Assembly: GCA_900315585.1 (NCBI GenBank)
Contig: OMZP01000007.1
Span: forward strand, 1-64,000
Length of the DNA: 64,000 nucleotides
Reading direction: 5' to 3'
Source: an uncultured Eubacteriales bacterium
Lineage (GTDB): Bacteria > Bacillota > Clostridia > Christensenellales > Aristaeellaceae
Positions 1-59,363 of the stretch are shown here, one piece after another. The notes under the pieces were generated by a model that made no database searches, was not told the DNA's origin, and saw only the letters and a list, made by a program, of their open reading frames with translations. Positions within the stretch are counted from its first letter, which is position 1. Each line of letters starts with the position of its first letter. The position numbers and the translations under genes are program-made.

Positions 1-387
1 AATGTCCTCCAAGCCCCGGTTTTTCAGACTGTTCAGCACTGTCGCCCAGTACTTCGCGCTCTCGTTCTCGCCGACCCACATCCCCAGCACGTCTTTACGC
101 CCATCCACATCGATTCCGATGGCGATGTACACCGCTTTCTTTACGACTTGGCCCTCGCTGCGCACGTGGTAGTGGATGGCGTCCAGAAATACCACCGCGT
201 AGATCGGCTCCAGCGGCCGGTTCTGCCAGTCCTTCACGACAGGCAGTATTTTGTCTGTCACCCGGCTGATCGTGCTGTCCGATACCTCCAGGCCGTAGAT
301 ATCCCGGATGTGCGTCTCGATGTCCCCGGTCGTCATCCCCTTCGCGTACATCGACAGGATCTTGTCCTCCACGTCCTGGCTGACGCT
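1..387 (-). pseudogene. IS256 transposase, C-terminal segment (partial)
   Basis: Read on the minus strand from 387, this encodes SVSQDVEDKILSMYAKGMTT, then PIYAVVFLDAIHYHVRSEG and GIDVDGRKDVLGMWVGENES. These are hallmark blocks of IS256-family (mutator-type) DDE transposases, including the Asp of the FLDAIH block. It runs off the left edge. The missing N-terminal part is at 3218-3552: the residues before the break there (KKNQTS) join directly to SVSQDVEDK here once the intervening IS21 element and one copy of its 5-bp duplication are removed. The gene was therefore intact before that insertion. Confidence 0.9.
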
Positions 388-461
388 TGAGTATTCCGCT
401 CCAGAACGAGCAGCGAGACCGGCGGCGTTGAGCAGCGATTCCGCTGCCGTTGAGCACCCTG

Positions 462-2890: not shown

Positions 2891-3217
2891 GGCGCCTTCG
2901 GCGCACCGGGCTCTGCCCGGACCCGAAGTTTATCGCTTTGGGTTTTCCAGGAAGGCGAGCGCGCTCACGCGCAAAAGAAAAGCGACGCAGCGCGCCGCCT
3001 TCCCACCAAACCTCGCACCGGCGCTCATGTCGCTCCATAGCGTTGCGCTATCCTCCGATGCGAGTAAAAGCACCTTCATGGTAACGCTATCCCCTCCGCT
3101 TGTCAATATTCAACGACGCGGTGACACTGCCCAATCTCGCCGGCGACGCTGCTCAATCTCAGCGGAATCGGTGCTCAATTCGGCCGGTTTTGGTGCACTG
3201 GCGCGGCGGTATACTCA

Positions 3218-3552
3218 ACGCTCGTCTGGTTCTTCTTGATCAGCTGCGGCTCGAATTCGCACTTCCGGTCCCGGAGCGTTTCGATCTCGATCTCCCCATA
3301 GCTCGTCTTCAGTTTCTTAGAACTGTGACCATTCCGGCTGTTGTCCGTGGCCTTGTCCCGGTAGTCGTACTTGCTGTAGCCCAGCTCCTCGTCCAGCTCA
3401 GCCTCCAGCCCATTCTCCATGAATTCCCCGATGGTTTCCTTGAACAACTCGTGGATGTCGTCCATGCTCCCTACGTTCGCCAGTTGCAGCAGCTCCCGTA
3501 TCTTCTCTCGTCGGGCCAACTCTTCCGGGCTTCTGTCTTTCTTCCGTGCCAT
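3218..3552 (-). pseudogene. IS256 transposase, N-terminal segment
   Basis: From ATG 3552 (GGAGG 7 bases upstream) the minus strand encodes the first ~110 residues of an IS256-family transposase, including KETIGEFMENGLEAELDEEL and the GYSKYDYRDK and SRNGHSSKKLKTSYGEIEIE blocks typical of this family. It stops matching after KKNQTS at the junction with the IS21 element and then reads into IS21 terminal sequence for about 14 residues. Together with 1-387 it forms one interrupted gene. Confidence 0.9.
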
Positions 3553-3828: not shown

Positions 3829-3968
3829 TGTGAATGTCAACGAAAATCTAAGCCAAGTGCTAACCAATATTTGAGCCACATGTGCTAACGAATACTTGAG
3901 CCACCAAAACCAAAAGTGACAGCGAATACCTGAGCCACGTGTGAATGAAACTTGAGCCACCGTAGCTC

Positions 3969-4000
3969 TTGACACCATCCCCTGATACTGGTACTATAAT
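3969..4000 (+). promoter_or_regulatory. Strong promoter inside the IS21 element, opposite to istAB
   Basis: TTGACA at 3969-3974 is followed by TACTAT at 3992-3997 (17-base spacing) and overlapping TATAAT at 3995-4000 (20-base spacing). It points away from the left end toward the structured segment 4006-4102. Confidence 0.6.
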
Positions 4001-4005
4001 AGTGT

Positions 4006-4102
4006 CTTTCCCCATGGGAGGTAAGGGGCAACGCTGGAGAGCGACCCTGGGGCGTCCATGGGGTTACGGGGGGAGTGATACCGCTTGGTATTACTCCTTT
4101 TT
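4006..4102 (+). ncRNA. Candidate structured small RNA carried by the IS21 element
   Basis: The segment begins just after a good promoter and ends in an intrinsic terminator. A long-range stem pairs CCCCATGG (4010-4017) with CCATGGGG (4056-4063), enclosing a smaller CGCT/AGCG hairpin. An 11-bp terminator stem (GGAGTGATACC/GGTATTACTCC, 4072-4097) is followed by five T. There is no open reading frame. I do not recognise the family. The role could be control of the transposition genes, which are read on the other strand. Confidence 0.45.
4072..4102 (+). terminator. Intrinsic terminator
   Basis: GGAGTGATACC and GGTATTACTCC pair around a GCTT loop with one G-T pair and are followed by TTTTT. It ends the candidate small RNA. 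Confidence 0.7.
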
Positions 4103-4188
4103 CAGGCTAATAACCCGCGCGTGAGCGCGACACTCCCCCTGGAAACCAAAGCCATAAACTCCGGGGTCTGGGGCAGAGCCCCAGGGCG

Positions 4189-4941
4189 TTACTGGTTTGC
4201 ACTGGCTTGGGCGGTAAGCAGCCGGTAGGACGGGCCGCTCATATCAAGGACATGGGAGCGGAAGGTCAGCCGGTCGACCAGTGCCGAAACCAGGGTGTTG
4301 TTCTCAAACAGTTCCGTCCAACGGGAGAACGGCAGATTAGTGGTGACGATGGTGCTGGATCTTTCGCTGCGGTCCGAGATGACCTTGAAGAGCAGCTCAG
4401 ATTCGTATTTGTTGAAACTCATGTAGCTGAGCTCGTCCAGAATCAGCAGATCCGTCTTATCCAGCAGACGTTCAATGCGGCCCAGCTGGTATGCGTCACG
4501 GGCTTACGTCAGTTCTGTGGAAAGGCTTCCGGCGTTCTTGAACAGAACCCGATATCCCTGCAGGCAGGCTTTCAGTCCAATGGCAATGGAAATGTGAGTC
4601 TTGCCCCTTCCGGGATTGCCAATCATGACGATGTTCTTGTGTTCATCAATGAATTTGCAGGATGCTAATTCCTGAATGAACACCGGAGTGACGCTCTCGT
4701 TCAGCTGGGTAAAGTCGAAATCGTCCAGGGTCTTCTGGTAAGGGAACGCCGCGGCTTTGAGACGCCTGCGGTTCTGGTTCTCCTGCCGCGCATTTGCCTC
4801 AGCCATGAGCAGATCCAGCAGCAGATCACTGAAATCCGCGTCGGGCTTGGCCTGGCGCAGGATATCCGTGTAATTGGCGAATGTAGGCAGCTTCAGTTGC
4901 TTGGACAGCAGCTTTATCTGCTCTTCTCTGTGGTCAATCAT
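4189..4941 (-). pseudogene. istB: IS21 helper ATPase IstB with an internal ochre codon
   Basis: From ATG 4941, overlapping the end of istA by ATGA, the frame encodes IstB residues 1-145 including Walker A GNPGRGKTH. It then meets TAA at 4504-4506 directly after SLSTELT. The same frame continues without a shift through ARDAYQLGRIERLLDKTD, Walker B LLILDELSY and the sensor region to the stop at 4189. A single base change appears to have truncated the protein before Walker B, which should abolish ATPase function. A sequencing error at one base would be the alternative. Confidence 0.88.
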
Positions 4942-6359
4942 GAGACGGCAGCCCCCTTCCCATACAGGGAATCATACGCCTCGAGATCCACAGGAGGAAC
5001 GGTAACGGCATCCTGAATTGTCGGCTGTTCTTTCGCAGACACGGTTCCGGCCATAACAGCAATGTAGCCGACTTCCAGACACCGGGTCAGCATTTCCACG
5101 ATCTCCTTGGCTGTAAGTTCCTGGCATTCCAGCCAATCAATAAACTGGGCTGGAACGGCGTTCTGCACAGGCCGGGCATAGCGTATTGCACGCCCCTTCT
5201 GAGCGAGGATCGGGAGATAATGCTGCAAGTCCAGCGATTCTTCCTTACGCCCAAAGAGCCGGTCATGCCGGGCAACCATGGTACCTTCAATCCAAACCTC
5301 TATGTGGTTCGGATAAGCCTTCACCGTGGTTGCCTTGCCGCGATACTTGCAGGGGACGGAATAGTGATTCGTCTCGAATAGAACCGTGGAATACCGGCCA
5401 ACCGTGGGATACACCTTCTTGGAGATGTCCGGCGTATAGCGGGGCATGGGCTGCAAGGCCGCCTGATCCTCGTTCAGCATTACGCCCACCTTATCGGGAC
5501 GTCCTTCAATCTGGTGATTCAGGTACTGAGTGCATTTTGCCAGCAGCTTCGCGTTCAGCTCGTCCAGGCTCTTCACCCGAGGCAGCGGGACGCAGACGTT
5601 ACGGCGAATGTAGCCCACCAGGTTCTCAACCAATCCCTTTTCGTTGCCGGAGGCGGGATTACAGAAGACCGGCTCAAAGCCATAATGGGCAGCCAGTTGA
5701 CTGTAATCATCCTGGGCTGCAGCCTGAGCACCAAAGCCGCTCTTCACCGCAACTCTGGCATTGTCGAAAATGAGACGCCGGGGAACGCCGCCAAAGTACT
5801 GAAACGTGTGGATGATGGCATCCAGAAAGCTTTCCAGATTCTGCCGCTTGTACGCTATGACATAGGGCGCACAGCTGTGGCACAGGCGGGCGCAGAAGAG
5901 GTTGACCTTCTCCTTTTCACCGTCCATGATGACTGTGGCTTCTCCCCAGTCGATCTGTACCGCGTCTCCTGGCGCAAATCGCAGTGGGATGAAAACCTGA
6001 CTGATTCTCCGTGCTGCCCTCATGTCGTGTACAAGGTTGCGCACGGAGGATTCGCTTCCTGTGAAGCCGCGTTCTTCAACAAGCCGCTGGTATATCCGGC
6101 GTGCCGTATGTCGCTGCCTCTTGATATTGACGGCATCGTCTTCATCCAGGCAGTCCTTCACGAACTGAACCACTTCGGGCGTCATGACTGTCGCATCACG
6201 GTTGTAGGGTTTGTGCTCCCACGGAACGTTATCTCCTTCCCAATATTTCTTCACTGTGTTCCGCGAGATCCCCAATCGTTTCGCCGCTGTGCGCTGGCTG
6301 GTCACGCCCTCCAACCGCAGCCGACGGATCTCCTTGTAAACATCCAAGGTTGTAACCAC
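4938..6359 (-). CDS. istA: IS21 transposase IstA
   Basis: This is the DDE transposase of the second IS21 element, 473 residues, near the usual IstA length. The N-terminus carries a helix-turn-helix (SQRTAAKRLGISRNTVKKYW, about residues 20-39). The integrase-type core shows the three acidic residues in VQIDWGE, LIFDNARV and GNEKGLVENL. A C-terminal beta-barrel-like segment (YSVPCKYRGKATTVKAYP) follows. The start is GTG 6359, with a GAAGGGG motif about 10 bases upstream. The stop overlaps the istB ATG (ATGA). The frame is intact, so with a working IstB it could be active. Confidence 0.92.
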   Translation of the reverse strand: MVTTLDVYKEIRRLRLEGVTSQRTAAKRLGISRNTVKKYWEGDNVPWEHKPYNRDATVMTPEVVQFVKDCLDEDDAVNIKRQRHTARRIYQRLVEERGFTGSESSVRNLVHDMRAARRISQVFIPLRFAPGDAVQIDWGEATVIMDGEKEKVNLFCARLCHSCAPYVIAYKRQNLESFLDAIIHTFQYFGGVPRRLIFDNARVAVKSGFGAQAAAQDDYSQLAAHYGFEPVFCNPASGNEKGLVENLVGYIRRNVCVPLPRVKSLDELNAKLLAKCTQYLNHQIEGRPDKVGVMLNEDQAALQPMPRYTPDISKKVYPTVGRYSTVLFETNHYSVPCKYRGKATTVKAYPNHIEVWIEGTMVARHDRLFGRKEESLDLQHYLPILAQKGRAIRYARPVQNAVPAQFIDWLECQELTAKEIVEMLTRCLEVGYIAVMAGTVSAKEQPTIQDAVTVPPVDLEAYDSLYGKGAAVS

Positions 6360-6472
6360 CTTTCAACGCCCCTTCCAATAGTGCTGTGACTATTGTAGGG
6401 CACATAGTCCGGTGGCTGAAATATTCGTTGGCATTTTCCTAAATGTGGCTCAAGTCCATTTTAGCATTCACA

Positions 6473-8197: not shown

Positions 8198-9400
8198 CTA
8201 TTTGCAAAGGTCAATATCAGCATCGACAATATCTATCCCCGAATCCTCCCCTACTCTATTTTGGTACAGCCCGTCTATTTCCTCCTTAATGTCGTGTGTC
8301 AACTTAGCCAGTGGACGGTCCTTCCAATGTTCCGGTTCGGTGTTCATCATAAGCAACATATGCTTGACTTCTTCTTTAGATGGGAATAATTCTTGAAATT
8401 GTTTATGGATAGCATCAATCAATTCATCCGTTATTATGTAGCGCTGGAAGTACATATCAGAAACGTAAGTCTTGTGCGATTGGTAAAGGTCGTTTACTGC
8501 GAATATGTCGATTGAATTCATAATCCTAGTTTCAAATTGGCGATCAACCGGTTTTAAGCCAGGCGCGAGCTTGATCTCAAAATCTTGTGGAGCCATGCGG
8601 GCTCCCGATAACAGCAAAGCTATTCTATTATCCCTTGGTTCTGTTCGGAATACATATCTGTCTTCAACTCCCTCCTGATACGGATACAGGATATCTTTGT
8701 CCTTATTATGCTTGAGCAAGTTGCATACGCCGCAACTCGGGATAAGATTGTTGATAGATAGCGCGAAATATGGATACTCCTTCTTGTTCTTAAAGTGATC
8801 CAATTGTGGACGGATAGGTTTTGAATCATTTGAAACAGTTGTAATATACTGGCGGTTACAATATGGGCACACTTCAACCCCAAGCATTTTTACAAATCTA
8901 TAAATATCCGGATGATTTGAAAAAGCTTCATACCGAAAAACATGATCGTACATATCATCCGAATATTGTTTGTAGTATGGTTGCTGTGCTTTGCTCCGCC
9001 TATTTCTGTAATCAATATCTGCCGGCGGCTTACCAAAAGGCATTGAAAATGTCAGCAGTCTACGTAATCCCTCTGGATTGACATGTCCGCCCGAAAAGCC
9101 ACGATATAGTGCCTCGTGCATATCAATAGAGTAATGCTTTATAATCTCTTGCGCAAGCAAAGCATCAACAGTGCGCTTCTCCTTATTCTCTATAGCCTTC
9201 TCATCAAAGTAATGCGATAGCACTTTCAGATACTTATTTGTCCTATTACGCGGCTTATTCCCGCGCATTGTAGCGGCTTTTGGAAAATCCCACAGGACAT
9301 CCTCCGGGAAAAATGGAACGACATCTGCTATCATGTTCAAATAAGTAGCCAATATCTTCTTCTGATCAGGCAAATCAAAGTATGGCGTAATCTTAATCAT
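8198..9400 (-). CDS. HNH endonuclease, PtuB-like partner of the upstream ATPase
   Basis: The 400-residue protein has a zinc-containing HNH nuclease core: CPYC at residues 178-181, LDHF around 200-203 and NLIPSCGVCN at 218-227, in the order CxxC - DH - N - CxxC. This is the arrangement of the HNH subunit (PtuB) of Septu anti-phage systems and relatives. N-terminal (1-170) and C-terminal (260-400) helical extensions make it longer than I expect for a minimal PtuB. ATG 9400 overlaps the TGA of the ATPase gene as ATGA, so the two are probably co-translated. It would cut DNA or RNA once released or activated by the ATPase; the substrate is unknown. Confidence 0.85.
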   Translation of the reverse strand: MIKITPYFDLPDQKKILATYLNMIADVVPFFPEDVLWDFPKAATMRGNKPRNRTNKYLKVLSHYFDEKAIENKEKRTVDALLAQEIIKHYSIDMHEALYRGFSGGHVNPEGLRRLLTFSMPFGKPPADIDYRNRRSKAQQPYYKQYSDDMYDHVFRYEAFSNHPDIYRFVKMLGVEVCPYCNRQYITTVSNDSKPIRPQLDHFKNKKEYPYFALSINNLIPSCGVCNLLKHNKDKDILYPYQEGVEDRYVFRTEPRDNRIALLLSGARMAPQDFEIKLAPGLKPVDRQFETRIMNSIDIFAVNDLYQSHKTYVSDMYFQRYIITDELIDAIHKQFQELFPSKEEVKHMLLMMNTEPEHWKDRPLAKLTHDIKEEIDGLYQNRVGEDSGIDIVDADIDLCK

Positions 9401-11538
9401 TGTTTTTCCAGCTCCCACATCATTCTATGTACCAGATCCAGCTGTTCCTCTTTTGAAAGACGCATTGATTCCGCAAGAATGCGGTCAATCTTATGTGCGG
9501 CATCCTCATTTTTCCGTAATTCCATTTTATTCTCCTCTTCTAGAAACATCTGTTCCAGCTTTGTCCGAAGTACTCCTGGTGCTACAAGGTTTATCATCTG
9601 ACGAAGCTCTTTTATCTTCTGAATTTTCTGATTTGCTGTGTCCTGTCGATTGTTGATTTCTCTTATGTCCGCCGCCATTTTATTGATTTTTTGGGCTGCG
9701 AATTCACCGATAGTGCCTCGATTAAGGAAGAAACTGTCCTTAAGAATCGTATGAATGTTTTGTCCAAAGGTCTCACTGGGCGTTTTACAGATTGTGGTAC
9801 TCTCCTCATCTTTCAATTTATTGGATGCCAGATATACTACATTCTCCTGTGGGATATCGCCCAGAAGGAGCGGCGAATGGGTAGAGAGCAGCAACTGGAT
9901 ATTTCCGACACATGTGTTCGGATAGATATGTGGAATGAATGTCGTAAGAACGTAAATCAATCGCCTCTGCCACTCCGGGTGCAGAGTCAAATCTGCTTCG
10001 TCCATTAAGATCATTACTGAATCGCATTCTATTTCCTCGTTACATATACTGCGTTCATTATTATAAATCTTATTTGGTCCATATCGTCCACTGCTATAGT
10101 CACATTTAAATATGTGATAAAGGCCCGAAAAAAGTCGAAGCATATTCTCTTCTCCGCTGCTAAGGCCCCAATCAAAATCAATCGTATATGTAGGCTCGCA
10201 TGTATAACGATATGCTCTGATAAACTCTGTTATAGTCTTCGCTAATTCATTTTTACCTTCCAACATTTCAAGGGACATCTCGTAAGTAAGTGGTTCTGTC
10301 GATATTTCTTTAAACAGCGAGAACAACCCTTCTCCCTCTTTCTGTAGAAAATCTATATATATCTTGCAGTTTACGCCCAACTCTTTTGCAATTCCAATAT
10401 GTCGTGAAGAAAAATCACTACCACTGAAGTAAGCTAATCTGATAGCCTCTATCTGCGCGGCAAAGATTTCTGAAGAAATCTTGTCATAGAATCGGGGCAA
10501 CTGCATTTCAGAAAACGGGATTCGCCTGGAACGGTGTGTCAGTATTCTCAGATTCTCAGAATACGCAAACACACACAGAACCGATAATTGAAGTGGTAAT
10601 TCTAAATCAGACATCTGCGCGACTTCACTTATCTTCCTATCGTTATATAGCAAATCGACATTCGACAAAACACTTTTATAATCGTCGAATGCAGAATCAT
10701 CTATTCGTGGTATCAATCGCAATGCCCTTGGCATTATAAGCTCTGGAATCTTCTTCTCCAGTTTTTTTCTGATTGCATATTGCTGACCATCGAAAACATA
10801 CTTGACCTGTTTATATACTTCATACGGAAAAAACTGTGCAACTGAAGATCCGATAGCCGCGCCAGTTGTACAATCGTATACGAAATAATCTCTCAGTCTC
10901 TCGTTGTTTTCCCTGATATGCAGTTCGTAATCTCTTTGTGTCAGCATATTGGTCATATGAATGATTTTTATCTTTCTGAATTTGTCCAAGAATTCCTTAC
11001 AACCATTATTATGGATTCTTCTCATGTGAGGATACATATGAGCATATGTAACAATTTGCAGGTCAAGCAAAGTTGGCTGCACTTTAATTTGAGCCGGGAT
11101 TCCTTTCCTTGCTCCGGGATATAGGTCAACTAGGAAGAACTTGCATTCCTTATCTGCATCGTCTTCAAAGAGCAAGATGTTTCTATGCTCAGATACGTCG
11201 AAACGAATGCCCTTTTTATCTCCTTGGGAATATTGAACTAAGCCATTAAAGATATAATAAAGCGTATCAATTAGATAATTAATTACCGTCGTTTTTCCAG
11301 AACCATTCTCACCAGCGATCACGTTGACATTGTATATATTCGTCTCTTCAGAGTCATTTGACCAAAATTCTTTGGGAAGCGGTTTTCGCCTGCACTCATG
11401 CATAAGAGTATTAGTGCCCTTATCATACAAAAAGGTCACCTTCGTAGAAAAGTTCAATTCAATATTATCTAGCCCTCTGAATGATTTTGGCTTCCCGTCA
11501 GCACCACAAAATTCAGCATAGAAATACAATAGTCTCAT
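9397..11538 (-). CDS. ABC/SMC-like ATPase, PtuA-like sensor of a defence operon
   Basis: The 713-residue protein has the split ATPase layout of overcoming-lysogenization (OLD)/PtuA-type ATPases. Walker A GENGSGKT lies at residues 76-83, an ABC signature-like SSGEEN at 460-465, Walker B VMILMDEAD at 508-516 and an H-loop STHS near 552. The middle ~370 residues would form the inserted helical region. A C-terminal extension (about 600-713) is rich in charged heptad-like sequence. There is no TOPRIM domain, and the nuclease is a separate downstream gene, as in Septu. The start ATG 11538 follows AAGGAGA by 6 bases. It is the first gene of the operon, and its ATGA overlap with the HNH gene implies fixed stoichiometry. 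Likely role: sensing infection and controlling the nuclease through ATP binding. Confidence 0.85.
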   Translation of the reverse strand: MRLLYFYAEFCGADGKPKSFRGLDNIELNFSTKVTFLYDKGTNTLMHECRRKPLPKEFWSNDSEETNIYNVNVIAGENGSGKTTVINYLIDTLYYIFNGLVQYSQGDKKGIRFDVSEHRNILLFEDDADKECKFFLVDLYPGARKGIPAQIKVQPTLLDLQIVTYAHMYPHMRRIHNNGCKEFLDKFRKIKIIHMTNMLTQRDYELHIRENNERLRDYFVYDCTTGAAIGSSVAQFFPYEVYKQVKYVFDGQQYAIRKKLEKKIPELIMPRALRLIPRIDDSAFDDYKSVLSNVDLLYNDRKISEVAQMSDLELPLQLSVLCVFAYSENLRILTHRSRRIPFSEMQLPRFYDKISSEIFAAQIEAIRLAYFSGSDFSSRHIGIAKELGVNCKIYIDFLQKEGEGLFSLFKEISTEPLTYEMSLEMLEGKNELAKTITEFIRAYRYTCEPTYTIDFDWGLSSGEENMLRLFSGLYHIFKCDYSSGRYGPNKIYNNERSICNEEIECDSVMILMDEADLTLHPEWQRRLIYVLTTFIPHIYPNTCVGNIQLLLSTHSPLLLGDIPQENVVYLASNKLKDEESTTICKTPSETFGQNIHTILKDSFFLNRGTIGEFAAQKINKMAADIREINNRQDTANQKIQKIKELRQMINLVAPGVLRTKLEQMFLEEENKMELRKNEDAAHKIDRILAESMRLSKEEQLDLVHRMMWELEKQ

Positions 11539-18131: not shown

Positions 18132-18207
<76 letters not shown>

Positions 18208-48229: not shown

Positions 48230-48515
48230 GCGTAATAAAACCCGAAGCACGTCTCTTCGTGCTTCGGGACGATAAGATATAAATCCAACCGCGGTACCAC
48301 CCGGATTGCCGCAACGCGGCCACTCTTCAACGCTCCATCAAGCGTCCAGCCATGGTAACGGGGCCTCCGTGCCTCCCTACTTTGGGCCTTGAACCCCATT
48401 GTTCAGGAGACCTGCTCAGGCACGAGACTGCCTCCCCGTTCGCCCATCGGCTTCCACCAACCGCCGACTCTCTTGAGGCGCGCACCGGGCGCATAATGCC
48501 TTCATCGCATTTCAA
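48230..48515 (-). promoter_or_regulatory. T-box riboswitch (probable leucine specifier)
   Basis: The minus-strand leader shows stem I with AGAGAGTCGG and GGTTGGTGGAAGCCGAT distal elements, and the T-box core GGGTGGTACCGCGG (48287-48304). A terminator CCCGAAGCACG/CGTGCTTCGGG (48241-48268) is followed by TTTTATT. In the specifier loop, between GGAGGC and TGCCT (about 48421-48435), the sequence AGTCTCG offers CTC (Leu) followed by a purine. Uncharged tRNA-Leu would favour the antiterminator. Confidence 0.92.
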
Positions 48516-59136: not shown

Positions 59137-59220
59137 ACAATACACCTCCAAAATGAGAGACACGCCCGCAGGAAAAGCCCTGGGGCGTGGACCATTTCAC
59201 AGGCGCGCATGCGCGTGTTC

Positions 59221-59342
59221 GTCTTCTTCCATCCAGACTGGCGTCGTTATGACGTTCACTGTCGGTACCGGAATTGCACCGGTTCGGCCCGAAGGCTCGC
59301 GGACTGTACCGCCGGTCGGGAATTGCACCCTGCCCCGAAGAC
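59221..59342 (-). promoter_or_regulatory. FMN riboswitch (RFN element)
   Basis: The minus-strand sequence holds the classic RFN blocks in order: CTTCGGGGCAGGGTG, AATTCCCGACCGGCGG, TACAGTCCGCGAGCC, ACCGGTGCAATTCCGGTACC, GACAGT and the closing GGATGGAAGAAG. High FMN should shut off ribU, probably at translation or by early termination. Confidence 0.97.
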
Positions 59343-59363
59343 TTGATCTTGCGATCTGGCTTA

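What the first reader, a model, noticed from the sequence alone, without database searches (positions are those of the whole stretch)
3969..4102. Promoter, structured RNA and terminator inside an IS21 element
A consensus -35/-10 pair leads into about 95 bases that form a long-range 8-bp stem (CCCCATGG/CCATGGGG) and an 11-bp terminator with T5, on the strand opposite to istAB and with no reading frame. IS21 elements are not known to me to encode a small RNA. It could regulate istB expression or act at the left end during transposition.
Basis: partly seen in the sequence, partly recalled or inferred. Interest (0 to 1): 0.6.

Follow-up and report, generated by a model that had tools for sequence, protein, structure and literature searches.

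The report
New structured RNA inside transposable elements
The segment is a real, previously uncatalogued structured RNA gene that sits near one end of many unrelated bacterial transposable elements (IS3, IS21, IS256, IS30, IS110 types) in one large bacterial group, which suggests that these elements share a common RNA-based accessory whose job is still unknown.

Summary
The IS21 element (3829-6472) carries an RNA gene on the strand opposite istAB. The same RNA recurs in a second IS21 copy in this window (3073-2916, minus strand), in an IS3 element elsewhere in this genome, and in 60 of 348 genomes sampled across the phylum. On 23 family sequences 13 of 16 core pairs show double changes (89.9% paired against 67.7% shuffled); on 45 further sequences the figure is 93.5% against 68.8%. 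The core has two near-invariant internal loops (AGGAUA/GAGCG and CAA/A). A second arm, closed by a coevolving stem that reaches past the 'terminator', makes a Y-shaped RNA of about 120-155 nt. It has no Rfam match. Of 120 distinct loci, 55 have a transposase ORF within 1.7 kb, from six unrelated kinds; 41 are convergent, median 97 nt from the stop codon. Element ends mapped in several families place it inside the element. It is therefore a new RNA family shared by unrelated insertion sequences, not an IS21 peculiarity. Base pairing to the transposase start is not supported. Best guess: a regulatory RNA acting through a common host factor; the mechanism is unproven.

The parts
3829..6472 (-). 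IS21-family element number 2 that carries the RNA (TGTGAATG...CATTCACA ends, AATAAC flanking repeat)
   Evidence: 97.5% identity to L034 stops exactly at 3829 and 6472; flanks read AATAAC on both sides; istA and istB Pfam hits
3858..3962 (+). Left-end terminal repeats (TTGAGCCAC repeats), outside the RNA gene
   Evidence: the repeat finder D1, D7, I1, I2; repeat positions 3871, 3896, 3931, 3952
3969..4000 (+). Promoter: TTGACA 3969-3974, extended -10 TACTAT 3992-3997 (TATAAT 3995-4000)
   Evidence: -10 enrichment in relatives, 40% against 9.5%
4002..4072 (+). RNA core: P1 (4010-4017 with 4056-4063), internal loops and P2/P3 hairpin (GGGCAACGCTGGAGAGCGACCC)
   Evidence: R1 89.6 bits, R2 41.3 bits; covariation
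4067..4102 (+). Terminator-like hairpin and T5, tip of the second arm
   Evidence: terminator-like in 62 of 94 relatives against 12% in shuffles
4061..4147 (+). Second arm: long-range stem 4061-4077 with 4131-4147, which in this copy competes with the local terminator hairpin
   Evidence: I3, 82% complementary over 17 nt; coevolution of this stem in relatives, own -24.0 against swapped -13.3 kcal/mol; fold of 4002-4160
4148..4160 (+). Conserved 3' element AAAGCCATAAAC: closes the junction with 4002-4009 (P0)
   Evidence: conserved AAAGCGATAAAC in 59 of 95 relatives; MFE structure
4161..4184 (+). Conserved G-rich hairpin (CCGGGGTCTGGGGCAGAGCCCCAG) between the RNA and the istB stop codon
   Evidence: recurs in many genomes of the family and behind most copies
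4189..4941 (-). istB of element 2, convergent with the RNA; interrupted by one in-frame stop at 4504-4506
   Evidence: Pfam PF01695; one TAA inside
4938..6359 (-). istA transposase of element 2
   Evidence: Pfam Mu-transpos_C_2, rve
2916..3073 (-). Second copy of the RNA, belonging to IS21 number 1, convergent with its istB (2138-2890, + strand)
   Evidence: R2 68.9 bits at 3071-3004; downstream conserved element AAAGCGATAAAC; fold z -3.3

Best explanation
The segment is a member of a new family of small structured RNAs that insertion sequences of several unrelated families carry as an accessory module near one end. Shown by comparison: the RNA strand, the P1-P3 hairpin with two near-invariant internal loops, the second arm, the location inside the element near the terminal repeat, and the recurrence with unrelated transposases. 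Inferred: transcription starts at the conserved -10 box and gives a short form ending at the internal terminator and/or a longer Y-shaped form. Proposed mechanism (inference): the invariant loops bind a common cellular partner (protein or other ligand), and the RNA acts as a regulator of the element, most likely lowering transposase output from all copies that carry it, rather than by pairing with the transposase message or serving as a cofactor of one transposase.
For: Covariation: 13 of 16 pairs with double changes, score 0.582 against 0.179 shuffled and 0.04-0.14 slid; order and phylum set 93.5% paired, 0.697 against 0.224 (aligned to the model). Strand: 90 G-U against 50 A-C cells, 33 against 4 at the first P2 pair. 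Second arm coevolves: own -24.0 against swapped -13.3 kcal/mol, median rank 0.017. Inside the element: ends mapped in IS3, IS256 and IS110 multi-copy elements, IS30, IS21. Unrelated transposases share it: IS3, IS256, IS21, IS110, IS30, DDE+AAA. In G852 all seven IS256 copies have it at the same place. Promoter and terminator signals are enriched. No start-site complementarity.
Against: No expression data; transcription is inferred. No partner has been identified. About half of the loci (65 of 120) have no transposase ORF nearby: some are element remnants (G652), others may be independent. Orientation is not universal: convergent in 41, downstream on the same strand in the DDE+AAA group, upstream in IS30. 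Many related IS elements do without it.
Confidence: 0.4

Rival explanations
1. Cis attenuator: the promoter fires into the element, and the P1-P3 hairpin senses something and decides between stopping at the terminator and reading on into the antisense strand of the transposase gene (or into the transposase itself in IS30), so transposase expression is controlled by interference.
For: Aptamer-like invariant loops and a terminator-like hairpin in 62 of 94 copies; convergent geometry in 41 loci; IS30 copies have the RNA 147-149 nt upstream of the transposase in the same direction; in the window the local hairpin and the long-range stem exclude each other.
Against: In the DDE+AAA group the RNA lies downstream on the same strand, where read-through would not meet the transposase. 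The competing strand lies downstream of the terminator, so it cannot be a classical antiterminator.
Confidence: 0.25
2. Insulator: the module mainly stops outside transcription from entering the element and ends element transcripts, like the IS-borne terminators described as mobile attenuators.
For: Terminator-like signal in two thirds of copies; position between element end and transposase; IS 5' and 3' terminators and their exaptation are described (PMC2965389).
Against: A terminator needs neither a promoter nor invariant internal loops with covarying helices; one third of copies lack the T-run.
Confidence: 0.2
3. Antisense RNA to the transposase start, as RNA-OUT of IS10, art200 of IS200 or RNA-C of IS30.
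For: Such RNAs are the usual kind encoded by insertion sequences (literature).
Against: Own RNA against own transposase start pairs no better than with other elements' starts: mean rank 0.48 over 31 elements.
Confidence: 0.05
4. A DNA-level or passenger feature: repeated hairpin DNA at element ends that happens to look like an RNA gene.
For: Repeats with hairpins are common at element ends; some copies are alone.
Against: G-U is preferred over A-C in the helices, the -10 box is enriched, and loops are conserved more than helices.
Confidence: 0.07

Closest known systems
Ssr9 and Asr9 small RNAs of ISPpu9 (Pseudomonas putida; PMC8450116)
   Same: About 180-nt RNAs encoded within an insertion sequence, one downstream of the transposase; free copies of ssr9 also occur away from the element.
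   Different: Tied to one element; they work by base pairing with the transposase 5'-UTR or with each other; no structured family shared across unrelated IS families is described there.
RNA-OUT (IS10), art200 (IS200), RNA-C (IS30)
   Same: IS-encoded RNAs on the strand opposite the transposase.
   Different: Antisense to the transposase start or coding region; here the RNA mostly lies beyond the transposase stop codon and no start-site pairing was found.
omegaRNA of TnpB/IscB elements (IS200/IS605/IS607) and bridge RNA of IS110
   Same: Structured RNAs encoded near the end of a mobile element (from general knowledge; reRNA and TnpB in PMC11061315, listed).
   Different: Each belongs to one protein family and guides it; here unrelated DDE and DEDD transposases share one RNA, transcribed inwards, without a variable guide next to the element end.
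Mobile attenuators (IS-borne terminators; PMC2965389)
   Same: IS-borne terminator structures next to transposase genes in Bacilli and others.
   Different: Described as terminators; no promoter-driven RNA with conserved internal loops.

Membership tests
IS21-family element (host of the RNA) | istA with DDE core and istB AAA+ ATPase, adjacent and co-oriented | tested here: met
   PF22483, PF00665 and PF01695
IS21-family element (host of the RNA) | Terminal inverted repeats with internal repeat blocks and a short target duplication | tested here: met
   (TGTGAATG/CATTCACA, AATAAC)
Any Rfam family | Score above a gathering threshold | tested here: not met
New RNA family (this report) | P1-P3 helices with compensatory changes | tested here: met
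   window copies score 89.6 (R1) and 68.9/41.3 bits (R2)
New RNA family (this report) | Second arm and conserved AAAGCGATAAAC element | tested here: met
   (59 of 95 copies with a recognisable 3' element); window element 2 has the variant AAAGCCATAAAC
Antisense RNA of the RNA-OUT/art200 type | Complementarity to the transposase translation start | tested here: not met
Bridge RNA of IS110 / omegaRNA | Obligate link to one nuclease or recombinase family | tested here: not met
   six unrelated transposase kinds
Riboswitch / attenuator | Ligand-dependent choice of terminator | not testable with these tools
   needs in-line probing and transcription assays

The most novel reading that the evidence does not exclude
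A categorically new layer of transposon biology: one RNA gene family that is exchanged between unrelated insertion-sequence families and acts as a common, transposase-independent accessory (for instance by capturing one host factor), with non-autonomous derivatives that carry only the RNA.
Probability: 0.3. Interest if true: 0.92.

Novelty: new variant of a known kind. Interest (0 to 1): 0.76.

Why it matters
IS-encoded RNAs known so far each belong to one element or one protein family. A single structured RNA maintained next to DDE transposases of five kinds and a DEDD recombinase implies a shared selective benefit or a shared host target. It was found in 17% of the phylum genomes sampled, in elements with up to seven identical copies in one genome. 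It gives a direct handle on how insertion sequences in these bacteria control their activity or deal with the host, and a covariance model to find them.

Tried and rejected
Rfam at gathering and relaxed thresholds: only chance matches. Antisense to the transposase start: rejected. Small peptide: group-B copies have AGGAGG-N8-ATG inside the hairpin, but group A has ACG at that place with the pair kept (T-A to C-G), and no frame is conserved. RNA on the transposase strand: less likely by G-U against A-C counts and an RNAalifold energy of -0.9 against -12.5. Riboswitch in front of a fixed host gene: 140 neighbouring ORFs of copies without a transposase show no recurring family. MITE reading: only 7 of 50 solitary copies have an inverted repeat pair, shuffled control 2; L156 is a plausible case. 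Named hosts: blastn found no copies in plasmids, phages or E. coli; six Bradyrhizobium plasmid hits at E 0.05-0.6 lie inside repC and were taken as chance. The nearest plasmid-borne IS256 relatives lack the RNA. Other phyla could not be searched. One search failed for a wrong coordinate and was repeated; one search failed for a wrong pattern and was repeated; one search was a formatting error.

Full report
OBSERVATION. The window holds two IS21-family elements. Element 2 runs from 3829 to 6472: the 97.5% identical copy in L034 stops at exactly these positions, the ends read TGTGAATG...CATTCACA, and AATAAC flanks both sides. It encodes istA (6359-4938) and istB (4941-4189, with one in-frame stop) on the minus strand. 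Between its left terminal repeats (3858-3962) and the istB stop codon lies the reported segment, on the plus strand. The promoter, the CCCCATGG/CCATGGGG stem and the hairpin with T5 are all there, and the stretch folds far better than shuffles (z -4.2, 0 of 200).

RELATIVES. A DNA search of 300 genomes of the same family found the segment at 69-81% identity outside close copies of this element, next to distantly related IS21 genes (istB about 41-43% identical to that of element 1) and in loci without any IS21. A covariance model (R1) found three copies in this genome: the reported one, one at 3073-2973 on the minus strand behind the istB of element 1, and one on another contig behind an IS3-type orfB. 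R1 hit 22 of 150 family genomes. A second model (R2) hit 15 of 347 genomes of the order and 60 of 348 of the phylum, with up to eight matches per genome.

STRUCTURE. The core is P1 (9 bp), an internal loop AGGAUA/GAGCG, P2 (3 bp), an internal loop CAA/A, and P3 (4 bp) with a purine-rich tetraloop. On 23 sequences 89.9% of pair cells are standard (67.7% in shuffles, 0 of 500 as high), 13 of 16 pairs show double changes, and the covariation score is 0.582 against 0.179, falling to 0.04-0.14 when the partners are slid. On 45 sequences from the order and phylum searches, aligned to the model and partly overlapping the first set, it is 93.5% and 0.697. Across 95 distinct copies G-U cells outnumber A-C cells 90 to 50, and 33 to 4 at the first P2 pair, which points to RNA of this strand. 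Behind the core a conserved 3' element (AAAGCGATAAAC) recurs. Between it and the core lies a second arm whose two strands coevolve: the own pair averages -24.0 kcal/mol against -13.3 for swapped partners, median rank 0.017 over 59 copies. The IS256 copy of G852 and the window copy trimmed at 4160 fold as a three-way junction. When the sequence is taken on to 4175 the window copy prefers the local terminator hairpin instead, so in this copy the two folds compete. A terminator-like hairpin with a T-tract is present in 62 of 94 copies (12% in shuffles), and a -10-like hexamer of at least 5 of 6 in 40% (9.5% in a control window); the -35 signal is weak.

LOCATION. Of 120 distinct loci, 55 have a transposase-type ORF within 1.7 kb: IS3, IS256, IS21, IS110, IS30, and a DDE (rve, Mu-transpos_C) plus AAA_22 pair. 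These are the only neighbour families that recur widely. In 41 loci the transposase is convergent, at a median 97 nt from the end of the RNA core to the stop codon. In the DDE+AAA group the RNA follows the ATPase gene on the same strand. In two IS30 elements it lies 147-149 nt upstream of the transposase in the same direction. Comparing identical copies in complete genomes put the RNA inside the element, with about 85-114 nt between element end and RNA start for IS3 (G633, G925) and IS256 (G852), and also inside an IS110-type element of G773. The IS30 of G799 has matching inverted repeats outside the RNA. All seven IS256 copies of G852 carry the RNA while its IS21 copies do not. Both full-length istB genes of the window's own genome have it. 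Neighbours of the 65 loci without transposase show no recurring family; some are remnants with fragments or one end of an IS256.

FUNCTION. Pairing with the transposase start is not supported (mean rank 0.48 over 31 elements). The shared loops with unrelated transposases, and the variable orientation, argue against a cofactor of one transposase and against purely antisense action. I therefore favour a regulatory RNA acting through a common cellular partner, with cis attenuation of antisense transcription and simple insulation as serious rivals. No step of the mechanism has been shown experimentally.

KNOWN. No Rfam family matches. Literature searches found IS-encoded RNAs that are each tied to one element, such as Asr9/Ssr9 of ISPpu9 (PMC8450116), and IS-borne terminators called mobile attenuators (PMC2965389), but no RNA family shared between unrelated IS families. 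The library is partial and supplements could not be read, so an unnamed candidate in a large published list cannot be excluded. Distribution outside this phylum could not be tested, apart from blastn searches of plasmids, phages and E. coli, which found no credible copies.

Noticed in passing
window 1-410 and 3175-3552: The two sides of element 1 carry parts of one Mutator/IS256-type transposase gene (profile 96-226 and 5-100, both minus strand), so IS21 number 1 appears to be inserted in it.
   Followed up: partly
window 4504-4506: istB of element 2 has one in-frame stop; the closely related copy in L036 is open.
   Followed up: no
window 8198-11538: HNH protein (PADLOC PDC-M62B, E 2.6e-66; also weak PtuB) next to a 713-aa ORF whose sequence looks like an AAA-type ATPase: a candidate anti-phage defence pair beside the IS21 elements.
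   Followed up: partly
window 4161-4184 and many genomes of the family: The G-rich hairpin GGGGTCTGGGGCAGAGCCCC recurs in many genomes, sometimes with no RNA core nearby; its role is unclear.
   Followed up: partly
L097, L114, L151: IS30-type elements with the RNA upstream of the transposase in the same direction, possibly as part of its leader.
   Followed up: partly
L156: Solitary RNA copy flanked by a matching inverted repeat (GTGTAAATGGTTT / AAACCATTTACA), possibly a non-autonomous element.
   Followed up: no
window 59217-59346, 48262-48514, 18132-18207: FMN riboswitch, T-box leader and tRNA-Thr, all on the minus strand.
   Followed up: no
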